The position numbers and the translations under genes were made by a program. From a bacterium (GTDB lineage Bacteria > Bacteroidota > Ignavibacteria > Kapaibacteriales > UBA7675): 64,000 bases of DNA. Below the pieces are notes generated by a model. That model worked only from the letters and a program-made list of their open reading frames with translations, was not told the DNA's origin and did no database searches. Of this stretch, positions 1-14,593 are shown piece by piece. Location of the stretch: positions 1 through 64,000 of the forward strand of contig JAUIKM010000008.1 of NCBI GenBank assembly GCA_030430495.1, read 5' to 3'. Each line of letters starts with the position of its first letter. The first letter of the stretch is position 1.

Positions 1-185
1 GGACTTCGATGAAGGGCATCCCAATTGGAATTGAGAAATCTTACTTCAATTGAGTCAACTGCGATGCCGGCCGATTCTTTTACTCGTACTTCCGCGTTGG
101 CGTTGCAGCTACTGAGATAGCCGATGCTATGCCATACCGTCAGGCTGGCTGCAACAATGAAAAGCGATTTTAGTGTTGGTTTCAT
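1..185 (-). CDS. Exported immunity-like protein, family B (partial, C-terminus beyond window)
   Basis: This is the first part of a gene whose ATG lies at 185-183; the remainder runs off the left edge. The visible 61 residues start with a Sec signal peptide and are almost identical to residues 1-61 of the protein at 4670-5476: the two DNA stretches differ at only five positions, all within the 60 bases nearest the start codon. It is therefore a recent duplicate of that gene. By position at the end of the Rhs tip/immunity array it is inferred to be another exported immunity-like protein. No function is demonstrated by the sequence. Confidence 0.6.
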   Translation of the reverse strand, partial: MKPTLKSLFIVAASLTVWHSIGYLSSCNANAEVRVKESAGIAVDSIEVRFLNSNWDALHRS

Positions 186-251
186 GGTTTAATGCAAGCA
201 TTTTCACGAGCTATAAATCAAACTGATGTAGATTGCACAACCGCAAATCAC

Positions 252-740
252 TTAATCTTTCCAGTACTTTTCGAGTTTGCGCATAGTCAGTACGTGGTCC
301 TGTGGCAGGATATTCATCAGGTTCTCGAGCAGCATGCTGTCCAAAAGGTAATAGTCCGAATTGTATTGGAAAATTTCGAAGTTGTTGAACGACACCGTAT
401 CAGCGTTTTCATGCTCATCAACAAGCAATACAACAGTGCGTGCATCCATCGGGAATTCTGTCCTGCCTTCATACGGTTTTAGAGTTTGGTTCAGCGAATT
501 CACGATTGGACGGAAATATCTTTTACTCCGGATATCCAGTTTAATACCCATCAAGGTTGTATATCCAATCACCTCTTCAACAGTCAGAGGAGAGTTGGTC
601 AATACATCCCATGGGATGGAATATACTTCCATCCGGATAATCTCCGGCTGTACCGCAGATGATTCCGACTGTGAAAAAAGACAGTGGAACCCCAAAAAAA
701 CAGTTAAAAGCGCAAAACCGGCAGAATAGATTATTTTCAT
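252..740 (-). CDS. Small exported protein, immunity-like family B
   Basis: A 162-residue protein starting at the ATG at 740 (an in-frame GTG lies one codon upstream), with an AAAGAG Shine-Dalgarno sequence about 7 bases before it. Residues 1-24 form a signal peptide ending near FSQ. The mature part shares a pattern with the protein at 4670-5476: W-D-x-L-x-x-S-P-L, a helix containing LN, a strand with R-x-V-x-L-x-x, an aromatic N-D-YY/Y motif and a Leu-rich helix. That makes it a diverged family B member, much shorter than its paralog (268 residues). It lies downstream of the M91-like tip and lipoprotein. A role as exported immunity protein is inferred from context only. Confidence 0.55.
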   Translation of the reverse strand: MKIIYSAGFALLTVFLGFHCLFSQSESSAVQPEIIRMEVYSIPWDVLTNSPLTVEEVIGYTTLMGIKLDIRSKRYFRPIVNSLNQTLKPYEGRTEFPMDARTVVLLVDEHENADTVSFNNFEIFQYNSDYYLLDSMLLENLMNILPQDHVLTMRKLEKYWKD

Positions 741-980
741 CACTTTACTCTTTCCCTTTTGTCTGGACCTGCAACCTGAAGATTCTTGAATTCAACATGT
801 CGAGTTCATACTCTATTTGTATGTTTGCTCAGTCCTGAGATGAGGGTAGACGAATATCTTGAAGCTATTCTCCATACAACGGTCCGCCATCGTTGTGATC
901 CGGTATGCAGATGAAGAATAACAGACTCTGCATTAGCGTGTTTCGGGATAGCCGTCATGGCTCAAGTACGAACTGGCAAA

Positions 981-1691
981 TTAATTTCTCATCAGATTCA
1001 GGCAGCCTTTGATTACTCTCATTATCTGTCGTGTTTGATCGTATTCTTCGTCCGACATGAAATCCAGTGCTTCCCGGGAGTATTCCATTGCATTCACTGT
1101 TTCCACGACATATCGATTTACGCCAAGACCGGGCTTCCAAACCGCAATATAAAAACATGCTACGTCGCTTGCATCTCTGAACAAACTGGCGAATTCTGCA
1201 TCACAAGCTAATCGGCAGGATTTAAGCTTACTTTGCGTGCTGAGCGTCCACACGCGTGGTTCGTGTGCCGGAGAACACACAATCACAAACGTGGAGTCGA
1301 TTGAATTGATAATTGACATTGCAAATTGAGGCGTCATAGCGTGATGGTAATCAACTTGTAGGATGTTCACAACGCAATCGATTTCAACCCCTCGATTTCG
1401 TAGTAATAAATCATGAGAAGTAGCAGTTAATTGCGAATCAAGACTGTGTAACCCAGACTGCCTGAAAAGAGCGTGGTGATAGTTGTTGTCTGTGAAATAG
1501 AAAAAGTCTTGTGTCGATTCCAACATCTTGTTCGGAACTTGATACTGAAATGAGTGTATGCGCACTGAATCTCCAAACGCCATATCGGGATAGTCGCGTG
1601 AATCCCCGATGCAAGAAATCAATGCAAATACGCTAATGAAAGTGAATTTTGGAAGGATGTTCATAGCTTTTCGGCGATGTTTAATAAACAT
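981..1691 (-). CDS. Predicted lipoprotein paired with orphan M91-like Rhs tip (immunity candidate)
   Basis: A 236-residue protein whose ATG at 1691 overlaps the stop of the upstream orphan tip by 11 bases, so translation is probably coupled. An alternative ATG at 1664 would give a more compact signal peptide. The hydrophobic segment ends in the lipobox L-I-S-C, followed by IGD, so it is predicted to be a lipoprotein. The rest shows no recognised domain. Overlap with a toxin-like tip is the classic arrangement of polymorphic toxin and immunity genes; lipid anchoring suggests protection on the envelope side rather than in the cytoplasm. Immunity function is inferred. Confidence 0.6.
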   Translation of the reverse strand: MFIKHRRKAMNILPKFTFISVFALISCIGDSRDYPDMAFGDSVRIHSFQYQVPNKMLESTQDFFYFTDNNYHHALFRQSGLHSLDSQLTATSHDLLLRNRGVEIDCVVNILQVDYHHAMTPQFAMSIINSIDSTFVIVCSPAHEPRVWTLSTQSKLKSCRLACDAEFASLFRDASDVACFYIAVWKPGLGVNRYVVETVNAMEYSREALDFMSDEEYDQTRQIMRVIKGCLNLMRN

Positions 1692-2316
1692 AATCAGATG
1701 GTGTTGCTATCGGATATGAAGTTGGGCCCTGAACTGGCTTGACAACACTGGAATTGTTGTAGGTCTCCCGCGGTGGATACCCAAATTCCGCCCGTGTAGG
1801 ATTCTCGAAATTTAATATGACGTTTTGCTCTTCTTTCGGCAAATTTGGATCATGGTCGGCCGAGACGGACCTGGGGGTCGATTTCCCCTGATCCGCCAGA
1901 TACATGTGCCCCATTTCGTGAGACATTATTACGAAAGATGGAGTTTTACTGACATTCCCGTCAGGGGAAACATCCACTCTCGTCACCGGATAAAGGTACA
2001 CTGTTCCTGATCCGACACCCTGACGATATGCATTTTCAGGGCTTTGTTTTACTACCTGGTCGCCACCGCTGGATACAATATGGATTCTGTGAACATGTCT
2101 TGATTGTTCCAAACCTGAAACTGCATCCGACACTGGACCTTCGCTGCTTTTCAATTTTCGGTAATCCTCCTTTGCCAATTCTGTTGATTCCGCCGGCACA
2201 TCATTGGCACGTGTGAACTTCACCGTGTCCCCACTCGGATCCTTCAACCTCAAGGGATCATTCGCCGCATAATGATACGGACTTAAACTCCGATACTTCT
2301 CCCACAAAGCATCCAC
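1681..2316 (-). CDS. Orphan Rhs C-terminal tip with M91-like zinc metallopeptidase domain
   Basis: The frame is open from the Rhs core end (GRFTSVDALWEKYRS) through a 170-residue variable domain. The only start near it is a GTG inside the core fragment, without a Shine-Dalgarno sequence, so the piece may be silent unless recombined into a full rhs gene. Counting from that GTG (211 residues), H133-E-M-G-H137 forms a HExxH zinc site. It is followed by E171-N-P-T-R-A-E-F-G-Y-P-P-R-E-T-Y, a pattern characteristic of peptidase family M91 (NleD-like effector domains, also found as polymorphic toxin tips). The core ends at DPSGD, the usual tip boundary. Target and activity are unknown. Confidence 0.65.
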   Translation of the reverse strand: MDALWEKYRSLSPYHYAANDPLRLKDPSGDTVKFTRANDVPAESTELAKEDYRKLKSSEGPVSDAVSGLEQSRHVHRIHIVSSGGDQVVKQSPENAYRQGVGSGTVYLYPVTRVDVSPDGNVSKTPSFVIMSHEMGHMYLADQGKSTPRSVSADHDPNLPKEEQNVILNFENPTRAEFGYPPRETYNNSSVVKPVQGPTSYPIATPSDYVY

Positions 2317-2354
2317 GCTCGTAAACCGGCCGAGTTCATCGTCGAACTTGCGGC
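2229..2354. repeat. Rhs core-tip junction repeat, copy R1
   Basis: This stretch encodes (minus strand) the end of the Rhs core, RKFDDELGRFTSVDALWEKYRS through DPSGD in two parts. It matches copy R2 at 3343-3445 over about 100 bases with a handful of mismatches, and copy R3 inside the full-length rhs gene at 7164-7262. R1 retains the most core sequence of the two orphan copies, reaching back to the RKFDDEL codons before the similarity to rhs ends near 2354. Such a shared junction would let an orphan tip replace the expressed one by homologous recombination. Confidence 0.8.
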
Positions 2355-2400
2355 CATCGTTGTTGGCAGATGAATATTGACATTGGGTTCCTTGCCGATA

Positions 2401-2787
2401 TCAGGGATGTCTCATCTGTTGCTCAATCTTGCTAAAGACGCTATCTATTTGTGCAGGAGACAAGTAGGATTTTGCAAAGTAAGCATCCTTGAGTTGATGG
2501 CCTGATTTGCGATATTCCGAACTGATTCTTGTACCAACAGCGTAAGTTTTTAGTTCTTCATCCGATAGCAAGAGTTTTATCTGGAACAAGATGGCCGGCA
2601 AGTAATTTTGGCGTTGTGTGAATCTTGGAGGCTTAAATTGATCGTGGCAAGACCCGTTGTAGCGTTCGTACTCAATTTGTACGATCGTTCCCCAGGAAAG
2701 AAAAAGCGCTGAAACAAGCGCAACAATCAATAAAAACGTTCGCTTCAGGAAAGACCTGCTACTATTTGTCTTTTTCATCATTCTCAC
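2401..2787 (-). CDS. Small membrane-anchored protein paired with orphan Rhs tip 2 (immunity candidate)
   Basis: A 128-residue protein. The GTG at 2787 has an AAGGAGG sequence nine bases upstream and overlaps the end of the upstream orphan tip by 26 bases; ATG codons at 2781 and 2778 are alternatives. Residues about 13-35 form one hydrophobic segment after a basic N-terminus (signal anchor or uncleaved signal). The remaining 95 residues are soluble and rich in charged and aromatic residues. No family was recognised. Overlap with the tip suggests an immunity protein acting in the periplasm or at the inner membrane. Confidence 0.5.
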   Translation of the reverse strand: MRMMKKTNSSRSFLKRTFLLIVALVSALFLSWGTIVQIEYERYNGSCHDQFKPPRFTQRQNYLPAILFQIKLLLSDEELKTYAVGTRISSEYRKSGHQLKDAYFAKSYLSPAQIDSVFSKIEQQMRHP

Positions 2788-3430
2788 TGGTTTGTTCCTC
2801 CTTTTCTTCCTCTTCTTTGTTCAGTGTATAGCTGTCAATGAAATAATAACCGTCGTCAGCGGAAAATATCTGTAACCGGATATATCCTCTTTTTGCCAGC
2901 TCTTCGGGGTCGGTTTCGGTTCCTGTTGGCAAGAGTGTGTTTGAAATGATGGAGTTTACTTTTTGCTTGGCTTCATCTTTAGTCAATCCATCTCCAAATT
3001 CAAATGCCTCAACCAGTATGTTGCGGACTTCTTGCGTACAGCATCCGCCGGGCGGTAGAGCTCCTAGTTTAACAATTTCTTCTATTCTGGTAGATAGATA
3101 TTCCTCTGCTTCCGCCGATAAGTTGATCGACATTTTGTATACTTTTCGATCGTTGTCAACGTATTGCTGAATCGTGTGCATTTCACTGACAAGTCCGTCA
3201 TTACTTTTGACAAAATCACCGCCGGCAGGGAAATATTTGAGTTTCGAATTCTCATCAACTTTTACAGAAATTGCATTGTGACCGAAGGCTTCAAATATCC
3301 CATTTGTTGGCGCAGAAGTCATATAGTAAATGTTTACCACATCCCCACTCGGATCCTTCAACCTCAAGGGATCGTTCGCCGCATAGTGATACGGACTTAA
3401 ACTGCGATACTTCTCCCGGAAAGCGTCCAC
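2762..3430 (-). CDS. Orphan Rhs C-terminal tip of unknown fold (possible permuted papain-like)
   Basis: A 222-residue frame that begins (GTG) in the core fragment and continues past DPSGD into a variable domain of about 185 residues. The domain has FGHNAISV near its start and GGCCTQEVRNIL later. A His before a Cys in the chain resembles circularly permuted NlpC/P60- or LRAT-like enzymes, but this is a weak inference from motif order only. The C-terminus is a Glu/Lys-rich tail. There is no Shine-Dalgarno sequence before the GTG, and the core fragment is cut right before RFTSVD, so the gene may be a silent donor cassette. Confidence 0.5.
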   Translation of the reverse strand: MDAFREKYRSLSPYHYAANDPLRLKDPSGDVVNIYYMTSAPTNGIFEAFGHNAISVKVDENSKLKYFPAGGDFVKSNDGLVSEMHTIQQYVDNDRKVYKMSINLSAEAEEYLSTRIEEIVKLGALPPGGCCTQEVRNILVEAFEFGDGLTKDEAKQKVNSIISNTLLPTGTETDPEELAKRGYIRLQIFSADDGYYFIDSYTLNKEEEEKEEQTSENDEKDK

Positions 3431-4669: not shown

Positions 4670-5476
4670 CTACCATCGGCTCTCAACATAGATCATTCGA
4701 GCAGATCTGACATCCGGCTGATTCAACAATACAGGGATCGACAAGCTGTCGGGAAATGTGCGGTCAATTTTCACATGCATAGTATCTCCTGGATCAATAA
4801 ATTCAAAACCCATGACTTTTCCATTCATATCGTAGAGTTTGTTGATCGTCATGTCATCGTTGTGAAAATCGTCAAGGAATTCCGCAAACTCGTCGCCATG
4901 CATGAAGTCCCAGACAGAAACGCGTTTCCGCAATATCGCAATCGTTTGATCCAGTTGCGAAAGGTGCTCGCTGAAAAGTCTCAGACTGGAATCCGTTTTA
5001 TCGGGGTCCCTGATTTTCGACATCTGTCTGAATAATAAATCCAGAACTTCCTTACTGCAGAAGTAGCTCGTATCATTCCAGTACATTTGGCAGTTAAAGC
5101 CATACTTGAACAACTGTTGAGACCCATCGCTACTATGCAGTCTTGCCACGAGCCGTATGTCTTCGAACGCCTGCGTCGTAGTTGAGTCCAGCTCTGTGTT
5201 TAACAAGTTGAGAAACTTACTGATGAACATAGGGTCATGTAACACTCTGTGGGTTGAGGGATTCTCTTCCCATATTGCGTATGCCGGAAGGGGACTTCGA
5301 TGAAGGGCATCCCAATTGGAATTGAGAAATCTTACTTCAATTGAGTCAACTGCGATGCCGGCCGATTCTTTTACTCGTACTTCCGCGTTGGCGTTGCAGC
5401 TACTGAGATAGCCGATGCCTTGCCATACCGTCAGGCTGGCTGCAACAATGAAAAGCGATTGTAGTGTCAGTTTCAT
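4670..5476 (-). CDS. Exported immunity-like protein, family B (full-length)
   Basis: A 268-residue protein. The open frame extends to 5629, but the ATG at 5476 is preferred: it starts a normal signal peptide (MKLTLQSLFIVAASL), has AGGAACG eight bases upstream, and is the point to which the duplicate at 1-185 is conserved. The ATG also overlaps (ATGA) the end of a decayed frame that could be a toxin remnant. The mature protein contains W-D-x-L-x-x-S-P-L and an aromatic Y-W-N-D-x-S-Y motif shared with the 162-residue protein at 252-740. It is inferred to be an orphan immunity protein. Confidence 0.6.
   Translation of the reverse strand: MKLTLQSLFIVAASLTVWQGIGYLSSCNANAEVRVKESAGIAVDSIEVRFLNSNWDALHRSPLPAYAIWEENPSTHRVLHDPMFISKFLNLLNTELDSTTTQAFEDIRLVARLHSSDGSQQLFKYGFNCQMYWNDTSYFCSKEVLDLLFRQMSKIRDPDKTDSSLRLFSEHLSQLDQTIAILRKRVSVWDFMHGDEFAEFLDDFHNDDMTINKLYDMNGKVMGFEFIDPGDTMHVKIDRTFPDSLSIPVLLNQPDVRSARMIYVESRW
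5292..5476. repeat. 185-bp duplication of the family B gene start
   Basis: This segment is repeated at 1-185 with five mismatches, and the part furthest from the start codon is identical for well over 100 bases. The left copy is cut by the window edge, so the true duplication is probably longer. It directly shows recent duplication within the array. Confidence 0.9.
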
Positions 5477-5710
5477 GGTCCAACGTTCCTGGTCAATATA
5501 GTTTGTCTTGGGTTTGTCAAATGTTCCTCCGGCGGTTGGGTGATCCCAGACTGTCGTCGGTCCCTGCGTCCAGAAAAGTATGGTGCCGCGGAAATCTGCG
5601 CTAGTTCCTTGTCCAGACGTTCTACCCATTTTGCATCAGTTCGGGCTTCCGGCCATTTCAGTTTCTTTGTTGATGACTCGTTTCTCTACCTATGTTCTAA
5701 CAAGTTTGAA
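5477..5710 (-). pseudogene. Possible decayed Rhs tip before a family B immunity gene
   Basis: Between two immunity-like genes the minus strand has two overlapping open frames with protein-like composition. One, from just after a TAG near 5700, reads STKKLKWPEARTDAKWVERL and onward and ends in TGA that overlaps the ATG at 5476 by four bases (ATGA), the same coupling seen between rhs and its immunity gene. The other reads ADFRGTILFWTQGPTTVWDH and onward into the signal-peptide frame. Neither has a start site or intact length. A frameshifted toxin remnant is plausible but unproven. The AT-rich rest of the 5477-5824 spacer holds nothing I recognise. Confidence 0.3.
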
Positions 5711-5824: not shown

Positions 5825-6589
5825 CTAAAGTCTCAATTTCTTCATTTGAATCAACTGAGCATCGTTGCCAATAGTAAAGTCGTATCTAAACAGAACCTTG
5901 TCCAGACTCATGCCGTTTTCGAAGTCCACCTCGTGCGAGTATACTGTAACTTTGATGCCATTGGAAACGATTTCAACCTGCGGGGCAAGTTCCGAAACTT
6001 TGTCGTCTGTGTGAATATCCGCACTTTTATAGTAGTTGTAGTCTGCTGTTTCCAGATATAGTATTGCGCATTCTATCGCCTCTTGGTAGGTTAAATCATT
6101 TCCGAACACTCTACGAGCCAGGAACATGAAGTCGTTGGATTCGAACCCATGCAGGAGATAAACGATGCCGGAATCGTCAAACGCCAGGATGTATGGATGA
6201 TTGTCTCTGTGTGCATACACGCGAAAGAAACTTACATTATTTACTTTGACACTTGTCGAATGATCATACGCTCGGACGGTTTTCTCATGCCAAGGAGCAA
6301 TGATATCGTAGTGTTCAATGTCAAAATCGTGTCTTGCCTTTGAAATTTGTTCATGCAGTTCGTTCAATCGGTCCGCCCCGGACTGAATTGTTGCAATGTT
6401 GATTGCAATGTCCTTCATCTCGGACTTGTCCATTGCGTGAGTCGCAGGAGAATACACAATGAACACGGCTAACATAAACGCGGTCAATAATTCATTGCTT
6501 GCCGTGAATGTGCCTGTAAAGCTCCTGCCGCATAGATTTGCCCTTGGTTGTGTGGCGCTAGTAGTTCGTCTCGTTAAATGACGGTTCAT
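5825..6589 (-). CDS. Exported immunity-like protein coupled to the full-length Rhs gene (family A)
   Basis: A 254-residue protein whose ATG at 6589 overlaps the rhs stop (ATGA) and follows a strong GGAGGTGA Shine-Dalgarno sequence located inside the last rhs codons. This is direct evidence of translational coupling. A long basic N-region precedes a hydrophobic segment (about residues 34-46, cleavage near THAMD), so it is predicted to be exported. The mature part shares the G-F-E-x-N-D motif and flanking strands with the protein at 3476-4327. Polymorphic toxin systems place the cognate immunity gene exactly here, so it is the best candidate antidote to the HExxH tip. An exported antidote implies a toxin acting in the periplasm. 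Confidence 0.7.
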   Translation of the reverse strand: MNRHLTRRTTSATQPRANLCGRSFTGTFTASNELLTAFMLAVFIVYSPATHAMDKSEMKDIAINIATIQSGADRLNELHEQISKARHDFDIEHYDIIAPWHEKTVRAYDHSTSVKVNNVSFFRVYAHRDNHPYILAFDDSGIVYLLHGFESNDFMFLARRVFGNDLTYQEAIECAILYLETADYNYYKSADIHTDDKVSELAPQVEIVSNGIKVTVYSHEVDFENGMSLDKVLFRYDFTIGNDAQLIQMKKLRL

Positions 6590-9500
6590 TCGTCACCTCC
6601 ATCTTCATTGTTTTTATCACGTTCGTTGACAATGGTTTTGTGTTGTTCGAATATTTCTGCTTGAGCTTCAAATGCCGGTCCTTCAATTGGATTGTTGGGA
6701 TCATTGTATCCAACCTTGTTTTCTTCGACTGCCTCCCGGTTTTGAATGTATTTATTGGGATCTTCTTGTGCCTGTGTCGCATGAAAAAGCTCATGTCCAA
6801 GTTCGGACACTACTTGAGAAATACTACCATCACCACCGCGAGTTCGGTCGGTGCCAAGTTTCCCTGGATCGAGCTTGATGATTGCTCCCTTGTATTCAGC
6901 GCCTTGAATTTCTCCCGAGCCATTCGGATTAAATCTCCATCCAGTGATATTTGCTTCATGTTCGCCAACATTGTCTTCCAAAGCTGCATATCTGATTTTT
7001 ACAACAAAGCCCTCCTGTTCAAGTGATGTCAGAATTGTTTTTCCTTTTTCCGTCAGTCTCAGTTCTTCCACAAGGGAACTTAACTCTGCCTTCTGTTCTT
7101 CCGTACCAACAAACTTGATTTCTCGCCCACTACGATCCACAATTATCAGAGGGTTGTTGTTGGCATAATGATACGGACTTAAACTCCGATACTCCTCCCA
7201 CAAAACATCCACGCTCGTAAACCGGCCGAGTTCTTCGTCGAACTTGCGCGCCGAGAAGTCGCTCAGATTGTTCTCGACGTCTTGTTCCTTGTCGATGAAA
7301 CCCTTGCGCGGCGCGTTCATCGACGTGCCGTAGTTGGCGACCTGTTCGCCGAAAGGCGCGTATTCAAACTGTGAACGGATGACGCCGTTCTCGTCGATCA
7401 CCATGCGCGTCGAACCCAGGTGATCGGCGATTTTATAGCGTTTGCCGCCGTTCGGTTTAAAGCTCAGCGCATGTGCGTCGCCAAGGCCGTATGTTAAATA
7501 CTCCGTGGCGTAAAGCCAGACTTCGCGGCTGCCGCTGCCGCAACTGGTGTCGTGTGTTTGCAGTCCGTTCCAGACCGCCAGTTGGCGGCTGCCCGCCAGT
7601 TGATAATACACCCAGAGGTAGGCGCGCCCGTTGTTGTCCGGCTGCGGTTCTTCATAAACGCGTTTTTGTTCGCGTTCGCCCGACGGTGAATGCCGATAAC
7701 GCCAGACATGTTCGTTAAACAAAGCCAGGGTCGCGAATTCGGTCAGGTTGCCGTGCATGTCGTAGCCGTATTGTTCGTCGAGATCGACCGGACAAGCCCC
7801 GCAGCCGTTTTGCACCCGATAACGCGTTCGCATCGCGCCGTCCTGGGTGTAGGTGTAGGTCGTGCTGTGCGTAGCGGTCGACCGACCCGAAAGGCGATTC
7901 GGTCCGACCGGGTCCGCAAAACTATAGGTCGTCGAGTCGACGCCGTCGATTTTCAAGGTGCGGTTGCCGACGATGTCGTACTCGTAGTTGCGATTGGCGC
8001 TCAACTGCAGGCTTGTCCAGTTGGTGATGCGCCGCAGGCCATCGTACGAGTAGGAATGTTGATTCGTTGGTCCCAGATTCCACCATGCGCTCGATTGTGA
8101 ATTTATCTGGCCGCTGTTGTCATAGGTCAGTCCCCAGCGCCACAGTTCCTGAGCCGTGTCCTTTACGACAATCGAGTCCGTGCGCAGCCTGGCGTCGTAG
8201 ACGTAGCGCGCGTCGATGCCTATCTGCGGATATTGCATGGAGCTCATTTCACCTCGTTCGGCAAAGTCATATACTATTTCAACCGTGCTCGGTTTGCCGG
8301 GTAATGCCGGAAAGGCCGGCGAGGTCACACCCAGGCCGCTGCCGGGCGCGCCCATGTCCGACCAGACGCTGTCGACGCGTCCGTTCCAGTCGTAGCCGTA
8401 CCAGGTCGAGTGCTGGCGTATCGGGTCGGCGGAGCGGACGGAGATCACCTGGTTCAGTGAATTGTATTCGTAATATACGGCGTCGAAACCGAGATTCTCG
8501 GTGTAGCGCATCAAGGCCTCCATTCTGCCGCGTTCGTCGTAACTCATTACGACATAATGCCAGGGCTGGCCCGAGTGCTGGCGATAAGCCACGGCGGATT
8601 CGCGGCCTTTCAGGTTGCGCACGAGGCCGTGCGGCGCAAGCGCGTTCCATTTCGTGTGAATCGGGAAGTCGCGGAAGGCCGCGCCGTCGACCGCCGGCAG
8701 CGTGTCATAGTGTATTACGGTGCGCAGGAATTCGGGAAACGTCCCGGCGTCCTCGAAGTTGACGGCAGTGACGGTATAAGCCGGTCGCAAGGTGTCCCAG
8801 TGTTGCGCCAGATGCCGCAGATAGGGGCCGTAGGCCTGATCGTCCGGGTGAACGTGCGTACTCGAAGCCGATGTTAAACAGACGCCGCTGTCGAGCGTGC
8901 TCCAGAAAGTCGGAATCGTCCCGAGCGGCGTCCCGCTCAGAGTGGAATTGTAGCCCATCACGCCGTCCCAGGCCGCGCCGTTGTTGATGCGCCGCGGGTC
9001 GAGAACGTCCGTCATGCGGTTCAGGTACGCACCCGACGTCGCCAGCGCGTCCGGGCCTCGGCGCTTGCGAAACTGAATCGGTTCGCCGCCTTCACCCAGT
9101 CCGGTTGTATCCACGTCCAGCAGCTCGGCCTCGCCTACGACGCGCAAACGGCCCAGGTCGTCGTACTGGTAGAATCCGATCCTCGATGTGTCGTTCTGCG
9201 TCTGAGTCTGCGAAAAACGCATGCGCCCCATGTTGTCGTAGGCGTAACTCACCGTGCCGAGATCCGGCTGCGATTTATACCGCACGCGCCCGAACAGGTC
9301 GTAGTCGTATTCCGTGGAATCGCCGGCGGGGTTGATCGCCAGCGTCAGCAGGCCGCGCGCCAACTCATATTCGTAGTAGGTCGTGGCCTGCAAACTGTCG
9401 AGATCGTGGATCTCGCGCCGTACGCGTCCGAACACGTCCTTGAGCGCGGCGTTGCGACGCCCCTCTTCGTCGGTCGTAGTTTCGGCAAACATACAGCCGT

Positions 9501-12500
9501 AGAAATTTTGCCAGCCGGAACTGAATCCGGACGGAGGATTGCCGAAATCGTAGTCTACGTAGCTCGTACTCGAATCCTCGTGGCGCCGCTCCCGAATACG
9601 ACCAAAATAATCAAGGGAATTTTCAGAGGAATTGCCGAGCGGGTCGGTGGAAAAGGTCACCTGGCCAAGGCCCGAATACTGCACCGTCATTGTATCGCGA
9701 CGGGTGGGGGAGTCGGGATTGCCGATAAAACTTTCGGTTTGTACAACGCGATATTCTTCGGCGTGCGTATGCCGCACTTTTGTCCAACGATTGTTGTCGC
9801 CCGCGTGGGAAGCCGAACCGACGTAGCTGTGTGTGTGCAGGCTGTCGTCCACCTTGGCGTAGATATCGGTCGTGCCGCCGAATCCATCCAGTCGGTCGTA
9901 GCGGAGCGTGTAGTCGTTGTAGGGATTGATATAGTCGAACTTGCCTCCGACCTCGTAGTGCGCGGCAAAGTCATCCCCGTTGTTGGCGAATTCGACCGAA
10001 TGTCCATAGGACATGACCTCGAATTCCCAGCGCACCTGTTTGCCTTCGGGCAGCGCAAGAATGCTGTCCAGGGCGGCGCCTTCGATGCGGATGTTTAACC
10101 ATTGCGGTTGAACGCTCTGCTTGCTGTAGGGAATAACATCCGTAAAATTTTGAATGCGGTCCGAGCCGGACTGTTTAACACCGCCCGTACCGAATCCTCC
10201 CGACGTGCTGATGGACCGGCAGTTGAAGGTGTAGTTCTTCAGTATCATGAGCGTGTCGACGTATTGCACAGGATTTGTTCCGGGCAAACGCATCGGCACC
10301 CACATGCGCGCCTGCAGAGTAACACATTTGCCCTCCACGGCGGTAAGGTAGGCCCGGAACTTGCACGAGTCGATCCGCGTGGCGGCGTGCAACAGGTCGT
10401 CATCTTCCGCGGCGGTGACATAGGTGATCGTGTAGTTTTGCGCGCGAGCGTAGGGAATTTTCCAGTCTTCAATCGTCGCCTGAACGGCGTCGTCCCGGCT
10501 TTTGTCGCGTTTGCGGGCCATAGCGGTTCCGGTGCTGTCGTAACAATCGACTTCTTCGTCGAAAGGACGCGCGGCTCGCAGTCGTTCGGCATTGTCGACA
10601 AAACTGCCGGTCGCCTGGGGGGCGTGCGTACGCGTCGAAGACTGTGGTCCGCAGTACAGCGTGTCGATGGTCCTGACGTAATAGCTCAGTCCGATCTGCG
10701 GCTCGGTAAAGACGCCTTCCAGTTCGACAGTGTAGTCCTCGCGGGAGGGGAAGTCGCCGGGAGCCCAGGCGGTGTTCAGGCGTCCGATTTTGTCGTATTC
10801 GTAGCGCGAGTACCAGCCGTTCGGGTCGACGCTGCCGCCGACGAGGCCGTACCATGTGCGTTCGTAGATAGTCGTCAGCCAGTCCGTGTCGGGCGAGCCG
10901 GAGCCCGGTTTGCGTATGCCGCGATCTTCGGCTATCGGCTTTTCAAAGTATTGCCATTTGCGGCTCAGGTCTATTGTGTCGATAGTTTCATCGTCGCGCA
11001 GCAGCCATGCCTGCGGGACTTCCTCAGTGCTCGCCACAATGTGCTCGGGCGCGTCGTCGTAGTGGTAGTGGAGTTTTGTTACGCCGCCATTGGCATCGTA
11101 GACAGCCGCCGGCAGATTGCGATAAATACCGTCGGAATACTCGTAGCGTTTGTTTAAGAGCAGGCTGTCGGAGCTTCCTATCACCGAGTCGGCAAGCAAA
11201 GCCCCGCGATGCAAGATGTTGTTGCCGACAGTATTGAACCAGGTTGAATACGCCGCCGATCGCCCGCCGATAATCGTACCACTGCCGTCGCGTACCGTTT
11301 CGCGCACGGGCAGACCGTAGATGTATGCCGCGCGAACCGTTGTGTTGACTGTTTCTTCTATGTCGAATGTATCGATCTGGTGAAACGATGTATACGGGTT
11401 GTTCCCGCTTGCTTCGAGTTCGCGCCATTTGGCCAGGGCGGCAAATTTGTTCCAGGACTTGAATGTTTGCGTCATTGTCGTGTCGCGCGTCCAGAGAGAG
11501 AGCAGGTCTTTTGTGACGGTGCGCACCGTGTCGTTGTTGTCGGGGCGCAGGACAATTTCCGTCCTCTGAGTTACAAGTTTGCCGTATTCGTTGTTTAACA
11601 GCAAGGTGTCGCCGTCGAAATCGGTCGGAACGCTGTCGCCAACTTCATAGTCGTACAATACTTTGCTGCTGGTCCACGAGCCGCCGCCCATGGTAAGTTT
11701 CTCGCGATGCGTCAGCGTGTGTTTCGGTTTGATTAATCGCGCCGAAAGCTGGACGTGATCGTAGTCCGTCACCGTCAGGACCGTGTCGCGCTCTTCCTCC
11801 ATGCGTTTAAGTTCAGTGTGCGAGAGCCACGGTGCGCGGAAACCATAAGAAAAGGGCTGGGGAATGTCGTCATAGCGCGTATAACTGTAGCGCATCGTCG
11901 CCGTCTTCGATTCGCGGTTGTCGGTCAGCTCGACCTTTGTTAACCAGGAGTCGTGGTTGCTGAGCGAATCCTCCAGATCGTCGAGTTTTGAAGTGACATC
12001 TTCAAAACTGTACTTGGCGGTTGTCAACAGCTCGTCGTCCTGTGTGTATTTTTTCAGTTCGTTTACCCGGTTGTTGAGAGCGTCCTGCACCGTGTGTTCC
12101 GTTTCGTACGATGTTATCGGCGTACCGGCGTTTTGTACGAAGGTCGTGTCCGTCGGTCCGCGATACGAGATTGTATGGTAAGTCGTTGGTTCGTCGACCT
12201 GTTTAAGCCGGTGATGCACAAAGTGAACGGTCACGTCGGGATCGTTCGGGTCCGGTGTGCGCGGGAAACCAAAATTGGTGTAACGACGGACATAGTATTC
12301 ATACTGGAAGGTGGTTCGGCGTTCTTCCGGATCTTCGATCTTCCAGATGTAGCCCAGTTGTGAATCGATCGAATACGGATCGGTCTGGCCGTACAAGCCA
12401 TCTGCATACATCGGCATTCCAGAGGACATGGCGCTGCCGCGTGCGGCTGTGCCGCCGCCCGCGTACTTGTACCAGGCGCGATAGGTACGGCCGAGGGATT

Positions 12501-13581
12501 CGATGGTGACGGCCGTTGGGTGATAACTGAAGTCGTGTCCCCAAAAGCGTCTCACGGTTGTCCTGCCGGCCGCATCGCGATACAAATCGTCCGGCGCGCG
12601 GTCGTATTCGATGTCCGTCACTTTGCCGGCCGTACCATTGATTTCCGTTAAATAGAAGATCGTCGGACCACTCAATTTGTTCCCATACGTTATCAGGCCC
12701 TGGTAGTTGGCCATGCCGAATGGTTTGACATTTTCATAGAAGACATATTCCAGTCCGTCGCCGGGATAATATCGAACGATTCGCGGTGCGTACACCCAAT
12801 CGTCGTCGGCATAACCGTAGTTAGTGTGCAGGAACTGCCAGGCATCCTCGTTGATTTCGACCGTTGCATATCCTTGAGTGTTGACGCCGTGTTCGTAGTA
12901 GTATCCGGTGTAGAGGAACTTTTCCTTGTGCAGATTGGAAGCGGTCGAATGTTTAACCTGACGGGCGTTGCGCAGTGTTAACACGCCGCCGTCGGCGCGT
13001 AGAATGTGGATCACATCCTGATCGTCGTTGTCGTTCAAATCATCCATGCGGTTGCAATAATCGTAGCCGCGGATGTGCCATATGAAATCCGCGTCGTAGT
13101 AATCTTCCTGGGTGCTGCTGCTGCTCATGCCGTCCGGGTCATTGGCAAAGTGCGTGGTTGTAGCCAGTACCTGAACGGCAAACCCGTTCAAGCCTATTAT
13201 CCAGGCGGCTTTGTTTTGTTTGTACTGCGCCCAGGAGGAGCTGTACTGATTGAATGTCGTAAACTCTACGGAGTTGCAGTAGTTGAGCGAGACGTTCAGT
13301 GGATAGCCGTCGCGCGTAAAAGATGAAATCGGATACGAATACGACAGGGCGGCATTTGTGTTGCCCACGACGACTTTGCCGTCGACGCTGATGACGTCGT
13401 TCTGTGCAAATCCGCGTTGGTCGTACTGATCCGACGCTTTGGAAACTTCATATGCCTCCTGGCTGTATTGAGCCGTCAAGTTTGCCGCTGCCGACGGCAG
13501 TAAGACCAACACAAGCAGCAAGCCTGTTACTTTCCGAAGAAATGAAGCTGTAGTCTGCTTTTGTTGTTGTGTGTTAAACAT
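6586..13581 (-). CDS. Full-length Rhs/YD-repeat polymorphic toxin with HExxH metallopeptidase tip
   Basis: A 2331-residue protein starting at ATG 13581 (GGGATC upstream; 31 bases after the preceding stop) with a Sec signal peptide of about 35 residues (LLLVLVLLPSAAANLTAQ). The N-terminal half is a large beta-rich region. From about residue 1290 YD-type repeats appear (YDLFGRVRYKSQPD, YEYDIVGNRTLKIDG). The typical core end follows: DHLGSTRMVIDENG, EYAPFGE, FSARKFDEELGRFTSVD. After about residue 2145 a 185-residue variable tip carries H2263-E-L-F-H2267, a zinc-peptidase site, with acidic candidate third ligands downstream. Rhs shells are known to encapsulate and release such tips. The AT-richer tip after a GC-rich core is usual for Rhs proteins. 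The Sec signal suggests surface delivery rather than T6SS loading. Confidence 0.88.
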   Translation of the reverse strand: MFNTQQQKQTTASFLRKVTGLLLVLVLLPSAAANLTAQYSQEAYEVSKASDQYDQRGFAQNDVISVDGKVVVGNTNAALSYSYPISSFTRDGYPLNVSLNYCNSVEFTTFNQYSSSWAQYKQNKAAWIIGLNGFAVQVLATTTHFANDPDGMSSSSTQEDYYDADFIWHIRGYDYCNRMDDLNDNDDQDVIHILRADGGVLTLRNARQVKHSTASNLHKEKFLYTGYYYEHGVNTQGYATVEINEDAWQFLHTNYGYADDDWVYAPRIVRYYPGDGLEYVFYENVKPFGMANYQGLITYGNKLSGPTIFYLTEINGTAGKVTDIEYDRAPDDLYRDAAGRTTVRRFWGHDFSYHPTAVTIESLGRTYRAWYKYAGGGTAARGSAMSSGMPMYADGLYGQTDPYSIDSQLGYIWKIEDPEERRTTFQYEYYVRRYTNFGFPRTPDPNDPDVTVHFVHHRLKQVDEPTTYHTISYRGPTDTTFVQNAGTPITSYETEHTVQDALNNRVNELKKYTQDDELLTTAKYSFEDVTSKLDDLEDSLSNHDSWLTKVELTDNRESKTATMRYSYTRYDDIPQPFSYGFRAPWLSHTELKRMEEERDTVLTVTDYDHVQLSARLIKPKHTLTHREKLTMGGGSWTSSKVLYDYEVGDSVPTDFDGDTLLLNNEYGKLVTQRTEIVLRPDNNDTVRTVTKDLLSLWTRDTTMTQTFKSWNKFAALAKWRELEASGNNPYTSFHQIDTFDIEETVNTTVRAAYIYGLPVRETVRDGSGTIIGGRSAAYSTWFNTVGNNILHRGALLADSVIGSSDSLLLNKRYEYSDGIYRNLPAAVYDANGGVTKLHYHYDDAPEHIVASTEEVPQAWLLRDDETIDTIDLSRKWQYFEKPIAEDRGIRKPGSGSPDTDWLTTIYERTWYGLVGGSVDPNGWYSRYEYDKIGRLNTAWAPGDFPSREDYTVELEGVFTEPQIGLSYYVRTIDTLYCGPQSSTRTHAPQATGSFVDNAERLRAARPFDEEVDCYDSTGTAMARKRDKSRDDAVQATIEDWKIPYARAQNYTITYVTAAEDDDLLHAATRIDSCKFRAYLTAVEGKCVTLQARMWVPMRLPGTNPVQYVDTLMILKNYTFNCRSISTSGGFGTGGVKQSGSDRIQNFTDVIPYSKQSVQPQWLNIRIEGAALDSILALPEGKQVRWEFEVMSYGHSVEFANNGDDFAAHYEVGGKFDYINPYNDYTLRYDRLDGFGGTTDIYAKVDDSLHTHSYVGSASHAGDNNRWTKVRHTHAEEYRVVQTESFIGNPDSPTRRDTMTVQYSGLGQVTFSTDPLGNSSENSLDYFGRIRERRHEDSSTSYVDYDFGNPPSGFSSGWQNFYGCMFAETTTDEEGRRNAALKDVFGRVRREIHDLDSLQATTYYEYELARGLLTLAINPAGDSTEYDYDLFGRVRYKSQPDLGTVSYAYDNMGRMRFSQTQTQNDTSRIGFYQYDDLGRLRVVGEAELLDVDTTGLGEGGEPIQFRKRRGPDALATSGAYLNRMTDVLDPRRINNGAAWDGVMGYNSTLSGTPLGTIPTFWSTLDSGVCLTSASSTHVHPDDQAYGPYLRHLAQHWDTLRPAYTVTAVNFEDAGTFPEFLRTVIHYDTLPAVDGAAFRDFPIHTKWNALAPHGLVRNLKGRESAVAYRQHSGQPWHYVVMSYDERGRMEALMRYTENLGFDAVYYEYNSLNQVISVRSADPIRQHSTWYGYDWNGRVDSVWSDMGAPGSGLGVTSPAFPALPGKPSTVEIVYDFAERGEMSSMQYPQIGIDARYVYDARLRTDSIVVKDTAQELWRWGLTYDNSGQINSQSSAWWNLGPTNQHSYSYDGLRRITNWTSLQLSANRNYEYDIVGNRTLKIDGVDSTTYSFADPVGPNRLSGRSTATHSTTYTYTQDGAMRTRYRVQNGCGACPVDLDEQYGYDMHGNLTEFATLALFNEHVWRYRHSPSGEREQKRVYEEPQPDNNGRAYLWVYYQLAGSRQLAVWNGLQTHDTSCGSGSREVWLYATEYLTYGLGDAHALSFKPNGGKRYKIADHLGSTRMVIDENGVIRSQFEYAPFGEQVANYGTSMNAPRKGFIDKEQDVENNLSDFSARKFDEELGRFTSVDVLWEEYRSLSPYHYANNNPLIIVDRSGREIKFVGTEEQKAELSSLVEELRLTEKGKTILTSLEQEGFVVKIRYAALEDNVGEHEANITGWRFNPNGSGEIQGAEYKGAIIKLDPGKLGTDRTRGGDGSISQVVSELGHELFHATQAQEDPNKYIQNREAVEENKVGYNDPNNPIEGPAFEAQAEIFEQHKTIVNERDKNNEDGGDE
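7164..7262. repeat. Rhs core-tip junction repeat, copy R3 (in the expressed gene)
   Basis: This part of the full-length rhs gene encodes SARKFDEELGRFTSVDVLWE and onward to the YHYA codons. It matches R1 over about 85 bases and R2 over about 60 with few mismatches. To its left, toward the tip, similarity ends and base composition becomes AT-richer. That is where tip exchange would have occurred. Confidence 0.8.
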
Positions 13582-13612
13582 GAATGTGATCCCGATAAAA
13601 CAGAATGAGATT

Positions 13613-14593
13613 TCAGTGAGCAATCACGAATGGAATGACTTGTTGTATCTTGAGTCCGTCCGTCAGCCGCAGGATGTAATATCCGGTCGCCAGATCTCCC
13701 AGAGGCACTTCGCTACGCAATGCGCGGTCCGCAGAAACCCGGATGTTTTCGCGCCTGAACAATACCTGACCGCTGAGCGCCAACACTTCCAGCGTATACT
13801 CTCCCGGCGGCACCTTGTCCGCCTCAACGCTGGTGATCGTTGATCCCGGATTCGGGAACACATTTAACTGTACCTCTTCGGGCATGGCGGACAGCGCCGG
13901 GTCCGGAAAGTTCTCAGGCGCTGCGACAGTCGCAACCGGCAGGGTGAGCAATTTGATGATCCAGGACGATTTGTCGGAGGCCTCGCGAATCTCTTCATCG
14001 ATGAATTCGGTCGGTTCGCGATACTCCATCGCGTGAAATGGACTGGTCTGCACCAATGTGGAGTCGCCGATGCCGCTCAGGTCGAGGACCGCCATCGTGT
14101 CAAGTCCATGCTGCCCGAAGAGGGCGATGACACGCGAAGTGTCGACTTCGACTGAACTGACAGTGACTGTTCCGCTGCAGTAAAACAGGAGGTCGTGCAG
14201 GCTGTCGCTGACGGGATTGAGTCTTAAACAGGCGACTTCGATTCGCAGGTCGTTCCACGCGGGGAAGTTCAATGTGGAAGTCTGGACTCTCAATGAATCG
14301 GGAATGTAGGGCAGGGTTGAGCCGCTCGTATCACATAGAACGGAATCGCAGACGCCCCAGTGAATGCGTTTCGGCTCGAGATGGTAAGAACTGTCTATTT
14401 CTACAATCAGCGAGTCGATGGTTTTGTCGAAGTTGTAGTAACCCGTGAACACGACTGTCTCATTCCCGGGGCTTTGAACGCTTGCCGCAATAATCAATAG
14501 TGCGACGATCAATACCTTGTTAAACGAAGGCATAGAACTGTACAGATTCCGTTGAGCGGCGTGATCTTCGGCCGCCCTTGAATTGGTTGTCAT
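13613..14593 (-). CDS. Secreted protein with type IX secretion C-terminal sorting domain
   Basis: A 326-residue protein; ATG at 14593 has AGGTGATG five bases upstream, while ATG at 14533 would give a shorter signal peptide (MPSFNKVLIVALLIIAAS). The body is a low-complexity beta-rich domain with no recognised family. The last 80 residues (NVFPNPGS..., VLALSGQVLF, LATGYYILRLTDG) match the T9SS type A sorting domain, which directs outer-membrane translocation and surface attachment in Bacteroidota. It ends 31 bases before the rhs start and is probably the first gene of the rhs operon, so it may be a surface partner of the Rhs protein. That partnership is inferred. Confidence 0.75.
   Translation of the reverse strand: MTTNSRAAEDHAAQRNLYSSMPSFNKVLIVALLIIAASVQSPGNETVVFTGYYNFDKTIDSLIVEIDSSYHLEPKRIHWGVCDSVLCDTSGSTLPYIPDSLRVQTSTLNFPAWNDLRIEVACLRLNPVSDSLHDLLFYCSGTVTVSSVEVDTSRVIALFGQHGLDTMAVLDLSGIGDSTLVQTSPFHAMEYREPTEFIDEEIREASDKSSWIIKLLTLPVATVAAPENFPDPALSAMPEEVQLNVFPNPGSTITSVEADKVPPGEYTLEVLALSGQVLFRRENIRVSADRALRSEVPLGDLATGYYILRLTDGLKIQQVIPFVIAH

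What the first reader, a model, noticed from the sequence alone, without database searches (positions are those of the whole stretch)
1681..2316. M91-like (NleD-type) metallopeptidase as Rhs tip
The orphan tip has HEMGH and, about 35 residues later, ENPTRAEFGYPPRETY, which fits the M91 signature. M91 peptidases are known as type III effectors and polymorphic toxin tips. A lipoprotein partner would be a new kind of immunity for it.
Basis: partly seen in the sequence, partly recalled or inferred. Interest (0 to 1): 0.55.

Follow-up and report, generated by a model that had tools for sequence, protein, structure and literature searches.

The report
Orphan Rhs metalloprotease toxin, lipoprotein partner
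A spare toxin tip of a bacterial Rhs weapon looks like a protein-cutting zinc enzyme of the M91 kind, stored next to a likely protective lipoprotein; it is a new example of a known arrangement, and its relatives elsewhere suggest that such tips attack the envelope of rival bacteria rather than host cells.

Summary
Window 1681-2316 (minus strand) is an orphan Rhs C-terminal cassette carrying HEMGH and, 34 residues on, ENPTR...PPRETY. PF14891 (Peptidase_M91) matches at E 6e-5, but at 23.9 bits against a cut-off of 25. Relatives with the same motifs score up to 65.9 bits. A model of the catalytic core (pLDDT 69) aligns best with solved zincins (Z 4.5-8.6; unrelated folds 3.2 or less). The M91 reading is well supported.

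The partner at 981-1691 is a lipoprotein by sequence. Lipoprotein immunity is not a new kind: the VgrG2b metallopeptidase family has it in Enterobacteriaceae (PMC6899460), and an M91-tipped Rhs of Salmonella Dublin has a membrane immunity protein supported by competition (PMC8867033).

What I add: beside 17 of 18 M91 Rhs tips with a separate downstream gene, that gene has an N-terminal export signal, against 31 of 53 beside non-zincin Rhs tips (threshold-dependent). One of 9 scanned M91 tips ends in LysM. The best reading is an antibacterial protease acting in the prey's periplasm, held as a silent or weakly expressed cassette, not an NleD-like cytosolic effector. New member of a known kind.

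The parts
1681..2316 (-). Orphan Rhs tip, ORF from an internal GTG (211 aa); no ribosome-binding site seen before the GTG (by eye)
1684..2241 (-). M91-like metallopeptidase domain (186 aa)
   Evidence: PF14891 E 6.1e-5, 23.9 bits; relatives; core model
1906..1920 (-). HEMGH, zinc-binding and catalytic motif (tip residues 108-112)
   Evidence: H, E, H invariant in 11 of 11 rows and 9 of 9 rows
1759..1806 (-). E146-N147-x2-R150 ... P-x-R158-x2-Y161: likely third zinc ligand (E146) and RxxY
   Evidence: roles by analogy with PMC6367388 (passages)
2230..2400 (-). Remnant of the Rhs core tail; a 123-nt stretch of it is 84% identical to the end of the main Rhs core and 77% to the second orphan
   Evidence: repeat family D1; TIGR03696
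981..1691 (-). Putative immunity lipoprotein; likely start 1664, lipobox LISC at 1611-1622; the first possible start overlaps the tip by 11 nt
   Evidence: no family in Pfam at E 10, or in NCBIfam, PHROGs and PADLOC at E 0.1
252..743 (-). Orphan protein with a hydrophobic N-terminus, relative of the putative immunity protein beside the M91-type tip L010, whose family also sits beside L014, L012 and, weakly, L007
   Evidence: phmmer E 5.7e-7 to L010, for a set of 26 sequences
2762..3430 (-). Second orphan Rhs tip, a different toxin, weak likeness to Lnb/DUF4105
2401..2787 (-). Its putative immunity protein, one hydrophobic N-terminal segment
   Evidence: by eye
6586..13623 (-). Full-length Rhs; from the ATG at 13581 it starts with a Sec-type signal (by eye); its tip (about 6589-7125) is a second, divergent M91-like domain
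   Evidence: 24.9 bits; 19.9 bits, below the cut-off
5825..6589 (-). Putative immunity protein of the main Rhs tip; hydrophobic segment near residue 40, not called by my signal rule

Best explanation
It is a toxin cassette: a displaced C-terminal tip of a secreted Rhs protein, kept downstream of the intact Rhs gene with its own immunity gene. The tip is a zinc metallopeptidase of the M91 kind (His108, His112 and probably Glu146 bind zinc, Glu109 activates water, Arg158 and Tyr161 of RxxY help). Once it replaces the tip of the main Rhs through the shared core-tail repeat, or if it is translated on its own, it would be delivered to a neighbouring Gram-negative cell and cut a protein in the periplasm. 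The lipoprotein made from the next gene, anchored in the membrane and facing the periplasm, would bind it and protect the producer and its kin. Shown here: motifs, family match, zincin-like core model, orphan architecture, lipoprotein signal, recurrence of exported partners. Inferred: catalysis, compartment, target, neutralisation, delivery, cassette exchange.
For: Family: PF14891 E 6.1e-5; 9 of 9 aligned relatives match PF14891 at E 1 or better, best 2.9e-18. Fold: the first 17 rows of the aligner's list (Z 4.5-8.6) are zincin-type proteins by title; row 18 is a Certhrax entry at 4.3 and the next row, unrelated, is 3.2; the active-site helix (core residues 87-102) carries HEMGH and the next helix (121-137) carries both Glu, Asn132 and Arg135. 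Compartment: a signal on the downstream gene in 17 of 18 M91 pairs against 31 of 53 non-zincin Rhs tips (one-sided p 0.003); lipobox 6 of 18 against 4 of 53 (p 0.014). Four of the 18 (L122, L124, L127, L128) are new loci from a search made after the prediction was written down and 4 of 4 fit; they were kept from 8 new loci because they sit on Rhs proteins. LysM at the end of one of 9 M91 tips. Cassette logic: shared 123-nt core tail, no ribosome-binding site of its own, a second orphan tip and an orphan immunity relative alongside. Delivery: SprA of the type IX system present, VipB/TssC of the type VI system not found.
Against: The profile score is just under Pfam's cut-off. Foldseek alone gives nothing significant (best E 0.35), and a first model of the whole tip failed (pLDDT 44.5). 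Putative partners with an export signal are common beside all Rhs tips of this class (31 of 53), so export alone is weak. The contrast depends on threshold: at the strictest one it is 10 of 18 against 22 of 53 (p 0.22), and with M91 loci of the class only, as the controls are, it is 10 of 11 (p 0.04) falling to 4 of 11 (p 0.74); lipobox 3 of 11 against 4 of 53 is p 0.09. An earlier version of the laxer rule gave 16 of 18 against 35 of 53, two-sided p 0.075; on the final set it gives 17 of 18, p 0.028. The partner of the main Rhs tip in this very window is the one miss. One relative (L025) has no partner gene within 350 nt, and one (L027) has it fused in frame. The lipoprotein's best match other than itself in 391 genomes is E 0.004, so its link to this tip rests on adjacency alone. 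Recent work files Tox-HopH1 of Salmonella as anti-eukaryotic (PMC12994826, passages).
Confidence: 0.6

Rival explanations
1. NleD-like anti-eukaryotic effector: the tip cuts a protein in the cytosol of a eukaryotic grazer or host, and the lipoprotein is not its immunity protein.
For: Known members include type III effectors (NleD, HopH1; PMC3482391 passages); Tpe2 of P. aeruginosa, an M91 protein, was predicted to have no immunity protein and to be anti-eukaryotic (PMC9846239 passages); Salmonella Tox-HopH1 is filed as anti-eukaryotic (PMC12994826). One M91 locus that is not Rhs-linked, L121, has no downstream partner.
Against: An overlapping or adjacent partner gene is present here, and beside 17 of 18 Rhs-linked M91 tips with a separate partner that partner has an export signal; the array layout is that of antibacterial polymorphic toxins; S. 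Dublin's M91-tipped Rhs behaves as an antibacterial pair.
Confidence: 0.12
2. Cytosol-acting antibacterial protease; the lipoprotein binds it only in transit or is unrelated to immunity.
For: 31 of 53 non-zincin Rhs tips of the class also have a partner with an export signal, so an exported partner does not prove a periplasmic target.
Against: Signal more frequent beside M91 tips at two of four thresholds clearly and a third weakly; LysM in one tip; the studied zincin toxin VgrG2b is harmless in the cytoplasm, toxic in the periplasm, and its immunity protein needs its signal peptide (PMC6899460).
Confidence: 0.15
3. Dead cassette: a displaced relic that is neither expressed nor recombined.
For: No ribosome-binding site at the GTG; remnant core only; frame-broken M91 cassettes exist in relatives (L017; L013).
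Against: The frame is open over 239 codons with the motif residues kept, and the lipoprotein frame is intact.
Confidence: 0.13

Closest known systems
Peptidase M91 / Tox-HopH1 (PF14891; NleD, HopH1)
   Same: HExxH, [DE]N, RxxY; occurs as a tip of Rhs polymorphic toxins (PMC3482391, PMC6367388, passages)
   Different: Orphan tip with an exported lipoprotein partner; Zhang et al. list no immunity protein for Tox-HopH1; just below the Pfam cut-off on its own
S. Dublin PAAR-Rhs-M91 SED_RS06335 and immunity SED_RS06340 (PMC8867033, passages)
   Same: M91 tip on an Rhs protein, membrane immunity protein encoded next door, contributes to competition between bacteria
   Different: PAAR domain and type VI context; immunity protein of 110 aa with one transmembrane segment, not called a lipoprotein; I did not compare the sequences
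VgrG2b C-terminal metallopeptidase and PA0261 family, Tpe-Tpi (PMC6899460, passages)
   Same: Zincin toxin, periplasmic action, immunity proteins that are periplasmic, lipoprotein or membrane-anchored
   Different: DUF4157 family, not matched here at E 10 or better; fused to VgrG, type VI delivery
Orphan rhs tips of Salmonella (PMC3967940, PMC7043789; search listing only)
   Same: Displaced Rhs tip; in PMC7043789 adjacent to a full-length rhs gene
   Different: Salmonella, not this lineage; their toxin and immunity families were not compared

Membership tests
Peptidase M91 (PF14891) | HExxH | tested here: met
Peptidase M91 (PF14891) | [DE]N beside HExxH (Tox-HopH1 signature of PMC3482391) | tested here: met
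   E146-N147; 9 of 9 rows
Peptidase M91 (PF14891) | RxxY, named for M91 and BoNT light chains in PMC6367388 | tested here: met
   R158-E-T-Y161 in the window tip; R/K-x-x-Y/F in 9 of 9 rows, Arg in 8 of 9 (by eye); the role is by analogy
Peptidase M91 (PF14891) | Score over Pfam's curated cut-off (25 bits) | tested here: inconclusive
   23.9, 24.8, 25.2 with neighbours; relatives up to 65.9
Peptidase M91 (PF14891) | Zincin fold | tested here: met
   Core model pLDDT 69.1, pTM 0.70; zincin-type rows at Z 4.5-8.6, Certhrax 4.3, unrelated rows 3.2 or less; no significant Foldseek E-value, so support is moderate
Peptidase M91 (PF14891) | Zinc-dependent proteolysis | not testable with these tools
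   none
Orphan Rhs toxin cassette | Rhs core-tail remnant fused to a tip, with an adjacent downstream partner gene | tested here: met
Orphan Rhs toxin cassette | Partner neutralises the tip | not testable with these tools
   none
VgrG2b-type (DUF4157) toxin | DUF4157 profile match | tested here: not met
   only PF14891 matched at E 10 or better
Type VI effector | Type VI machinery in the genome (VipB/TssC) | tested here: not met
   no match in the window's own genome, 95.6% complete; one component sought

The most novel reading that the evidence does not exclude
Zincin-tipped Rhs toxins of Bacteroidota form a broad class of envelope proteases that attack membrane-anchored lipoproteins, and their immunity proteins are often lipoproteins themselves because protection is needed at the membrane anchor. 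Post hoc, all zincin tips together have a lipobox partner in 12 of 25 cases against 4 of 53 beside other tips (one-sided p 0.0001), and VgrG2b, another zincin toxin, reduced membrane-bound lipoproteins in lysates at non-physiological levels (PMC6899460).
Probability: 0.12. Interest if true: 0.6.

Novelty: new member of a known kind. Interest (0 to 1): 0.35.

Why it matters
Papers differ on whether M91 (Tox-HopH1) tips are antibacterial or anti-eukaryotic: antibacterial in S. Dublin (PMC8867033), filed as anti-eukaryotic in a 2026 Salmonella survey (PMC12994826). The recurrence of exported partners beside M91 Rhs tips in Bacteroidota argues for antibacterial, periplasmic use there and gives a set of candidate toxin-immunity pairs to test.

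Tried and rejected
A model of the whole 186-aa tip with 5 sequences failed (pLDDT 44.5); a trimmed core with 6 sequences worked better. Foldseek alone gave no significant match in the PDB (best E 0.35) or among viral models (0.27). A profile search of PDB sequences gave 27 weak hits, zincins mixed with chance ones (best E 0.05). The viral collection held no relative; the plasmid collection one partial match in Aureibacter, whose surroundings (L130) were listed but not analysed. Relatives of the lipoprotein: nothing convincing. My first control script missed the core in many loci and was replaced.

Counts. One search gave 14 of 15 for an early set; one search printed 18 of 19, a slip (one locus counted twice); one search gave 17 of 18 with L013 in and L012 out. 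On checking, L013 proved frame-broken between core and tip and L012 proved a proper Rhs M91-type tip with a partner, so they were exchanged; the total stayed 17 of 18 and lipobox rose from 5 to 6.

Rows dropped before the count of 18. Of 15 matches: L011 and L015 (not Rhs, by eye), L013 and L017 (frame-broken). Of 4 loci: L019 (near copy of L018), L020 and L021 (same places again). Of 8: L022-L024 (repeats), L025 (no partner gene within 350 nt), L027 (partner fused in frame, lipobox TQGC), L029 (fragment). Of 8 new loci: L121, L125, L126, L129, judged not Rhs-linked (L121 also by NCBIfam; the others by eye); of these L129 has a downstream gene with a signal, L125 one without, L121 and L126 none. 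Counting L025 as a miss gives 17 of 19, one-sided p 0.012. Controls: 79 loci, 3 removed as M91 or window copies, 1 near-identical, 15 without a close downstream ORF, 7 zincin-like set apart, 53 left. The controls come from the class only; 7 of the 18 M91 loci come from elsewhere in the phylum. The signal rule is my own, not SignalP; on shuffled N-termini a laxer form of it fires in 21-25%; it fired on 0 of 12 other frames of the window. The lipobox calls in L010 and L012 may be spurious. The loci are not phylogenetically independent.

Rejected: DUF4157/VgrG2b membership; type VI delivery; lipoprotein immunity as a new kind.

Papers: passages only of PMC3482391, PMC8867033, PMC6899460, PMC9846239, PMC6367388, PMC7073777, PMC12994826; PMC3967940 and PMC7043789 from a search listing. 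That I found no lipoprotein partner described for an M91 tip rests on searches in an open-access library.

Full report
The observation. The ORF at 1681-2316 lies on the minus strand. Its frame is open back to 2400 and starts with a remnant of the Rhs core (TIGR03696, 34.9 bits), so it is an orphan C-terminal tip. HEMGH is at tip residues 108-112, and ENPTR...PPRETY begins 34 residues after the second His. The motif claim is exact.

Family. Pfam gives one match, PF14891 Peptidase_M91, E 6.1e-5, 23.9 bits against a cut-off of 25, over the C-terminal part of the profile. Relatives found by protein, profile and family searches share HExxH, a Glu upstream of EN (eight residues in the window tip), EN, Arg150 and, in 9 of 9 aligned rows, R/K-x-x-Y/F. 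All 9 match PF14891 at E 1 or better and the best reaches 2.9e-18. Two more loci are from one Muribaculaceae MAG. Matches to the M91 profile are rare: 12 of 391 genomes of the class at E 0.01 and 15 of 395 of the phylum at E 0.001, and not all of these are Rhs tips.

Fold. A model of the whole tip failed (pLDDT 44.5). A trimmed core with 6 sequences reached pLDDT 69.1 and pTM 0.70. Foldseek found nothing significant. The second aligner ranks 17 rows of zincin-type proteins first (clostridial neurotoxin catalytic domains, a Weissella relative, GtgA, lethal factor, PPEP-1, NleC, YbeY; Z 4.5-8.6), then a Certhrax entry at 4.3, then unrelated folds from 3.2 down. The tool warns that Z under 8 may mean only a common arrangement, so I take this as support for a zincin fold and no more. 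A remote likeness of M91 to BoNT light chains is already in print (PMC6367388, passages). Which Glu is the third zinc ligand, 146 or 138, I could not test; I favour 146 by spacing.

Surroundings. The full-length Rhs at 6586-13623 (with a Sec-type signal from the ATG at 13581, by eye) ends in another M91-like tip (24.9 bits; 19.9 in the whole protein) followed by a putative immunity gene at 5825-6589. Downstream lie more genes that look like immunity genes, a second orphan tip with its partner, this tip with its partner, and a protein at 252-743 whose family sits beside the M91-type tips L010, L014, L012 and, weakly, L007 in other genomes. The three core tails are direct repeats of 123 nt, 77% and 84% identical to the copy of this orphan. 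A piece of 188 nt at the very start of the contig repeats 5292-5479 at 97%, so the array probably runs on beyond the assembly. I saw no ribosome-binding site at the tip's GTG.

Partner. The gene at 981-1691 overlaps the tip's end by 11 nt from its first start, or begins 16 nt after the stop codon at the second. Its N-terminus, MNILPKFTFISVFALISC, is a lipoprotein signal by eye and by my rule. It matches no family and has no clear relative.

Is an exported partner telling? I compared the first downstream gene of M91 Rhs tips with that of other Rhs tips taken by search rank from the same class. With a uniform rule, 17 of 18 M91 pairs and 31 of 53 non-zincin controls have an N-terminal signal (one-sided p 0.003); lipobox 6 of 18 against 4 of 53 (p 0.014). 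Limits: at the strictest threshold 10 of 18 against 22 of 53 (p 0.22); M91 loci of the class alone 10 of 11 (p 0.04), 4 of 11 at the strictest threshold; the miss is the partner of the main Rhs tip of this window. Four pairs are new loci found after the prediction was noted; all four fit, and each sits on an Rhs protein. Post hoc, 7 of 7 control tips with other zincin motifs also have partners with a signal, 6 with a lipobox. So exported partners are common in this class and look more common beside metallopeptidase tips. One of 9 M91 tips scanned carries a C-terminal LysM domain, which fits action at the cell wall.

Delivery. The genome has SprA of the type IX system and no VipB/TssC; the gene before the Rhs has a weak type IX sorting tail (20.1 bits, cut-off 27). 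Sec plus type IX export is possible but untested; a type IX link was hypothesised for another polymorphic toxin class of Bacteroidetes (PMC7073777, passages).

What is known. M91 (Tox-HopH1) toxins, with RHS repeats among their contexts, were described in 2012 (PMC3482391). S. Dublin's M91-tipped Rhs and its membrane immunity protein act in competition (PMC8867033). Lipoprotein immunity to a zincin toxin family in Enterobacteriaceae is known from VgrG2b (PMC6899460). The window's cassette combines these known parts.

Verdict. M91-like: about 0.9. Antibacterial with the lipoprotein as immunity protein, acting in the periplasm: about 0.6. New member of a known kind; interest 0.35. The recount did not require a change of odds.

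Noticed in passing
window 2762-3430 (-) and 2401-2787 (-): Second orphan Rhs tip with a weak likeness to Lnb/DUF4105 (NF051878 E 0.0045, Lnb_N E 0.066; GHNAIS and GGCC motifs) and a one-TM partner; it may be a permuted NlpC/P60 toxin like Tox-Act1 (PMC12994826, passages).
   Followed up: no
window 6589-7125 (-): The intact Rhs gene ends in a different M91-like tip (PF14891 19.9-24.9 bits), so two M91-like tips share one array.
   Followed up: partly
window 1-188 and 5292-5479: 97% identical direct repeat; copy 1 is at the contig end, so the array is probably cut by the assembly.
   Followed up: no
L021 2803-3504 and L016: M91 tip with a C-terminal LysM domain (Pfam E 2.8e-11), followed by a gene with a hydrophobic N-terminus ending in LLIMC.
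   Followed up: partly
L027 1441-2604: M91 tip and lipoprotein immunity-like protein in one open frame without a stop between them; real fusion or assembly error.
   Followed up: no
L088, L093, L098, L099: Rhs tips with HEVSH, HELFGH or HELYGH motifs, each followed by a gene whose product has a lipobox; another metallopeptidase-lipoprotein pairing.
   Followed up: partly
L017 and L013: Frame-broken M91 cassettes whose exported partner genes are still open.
   Followed up: no
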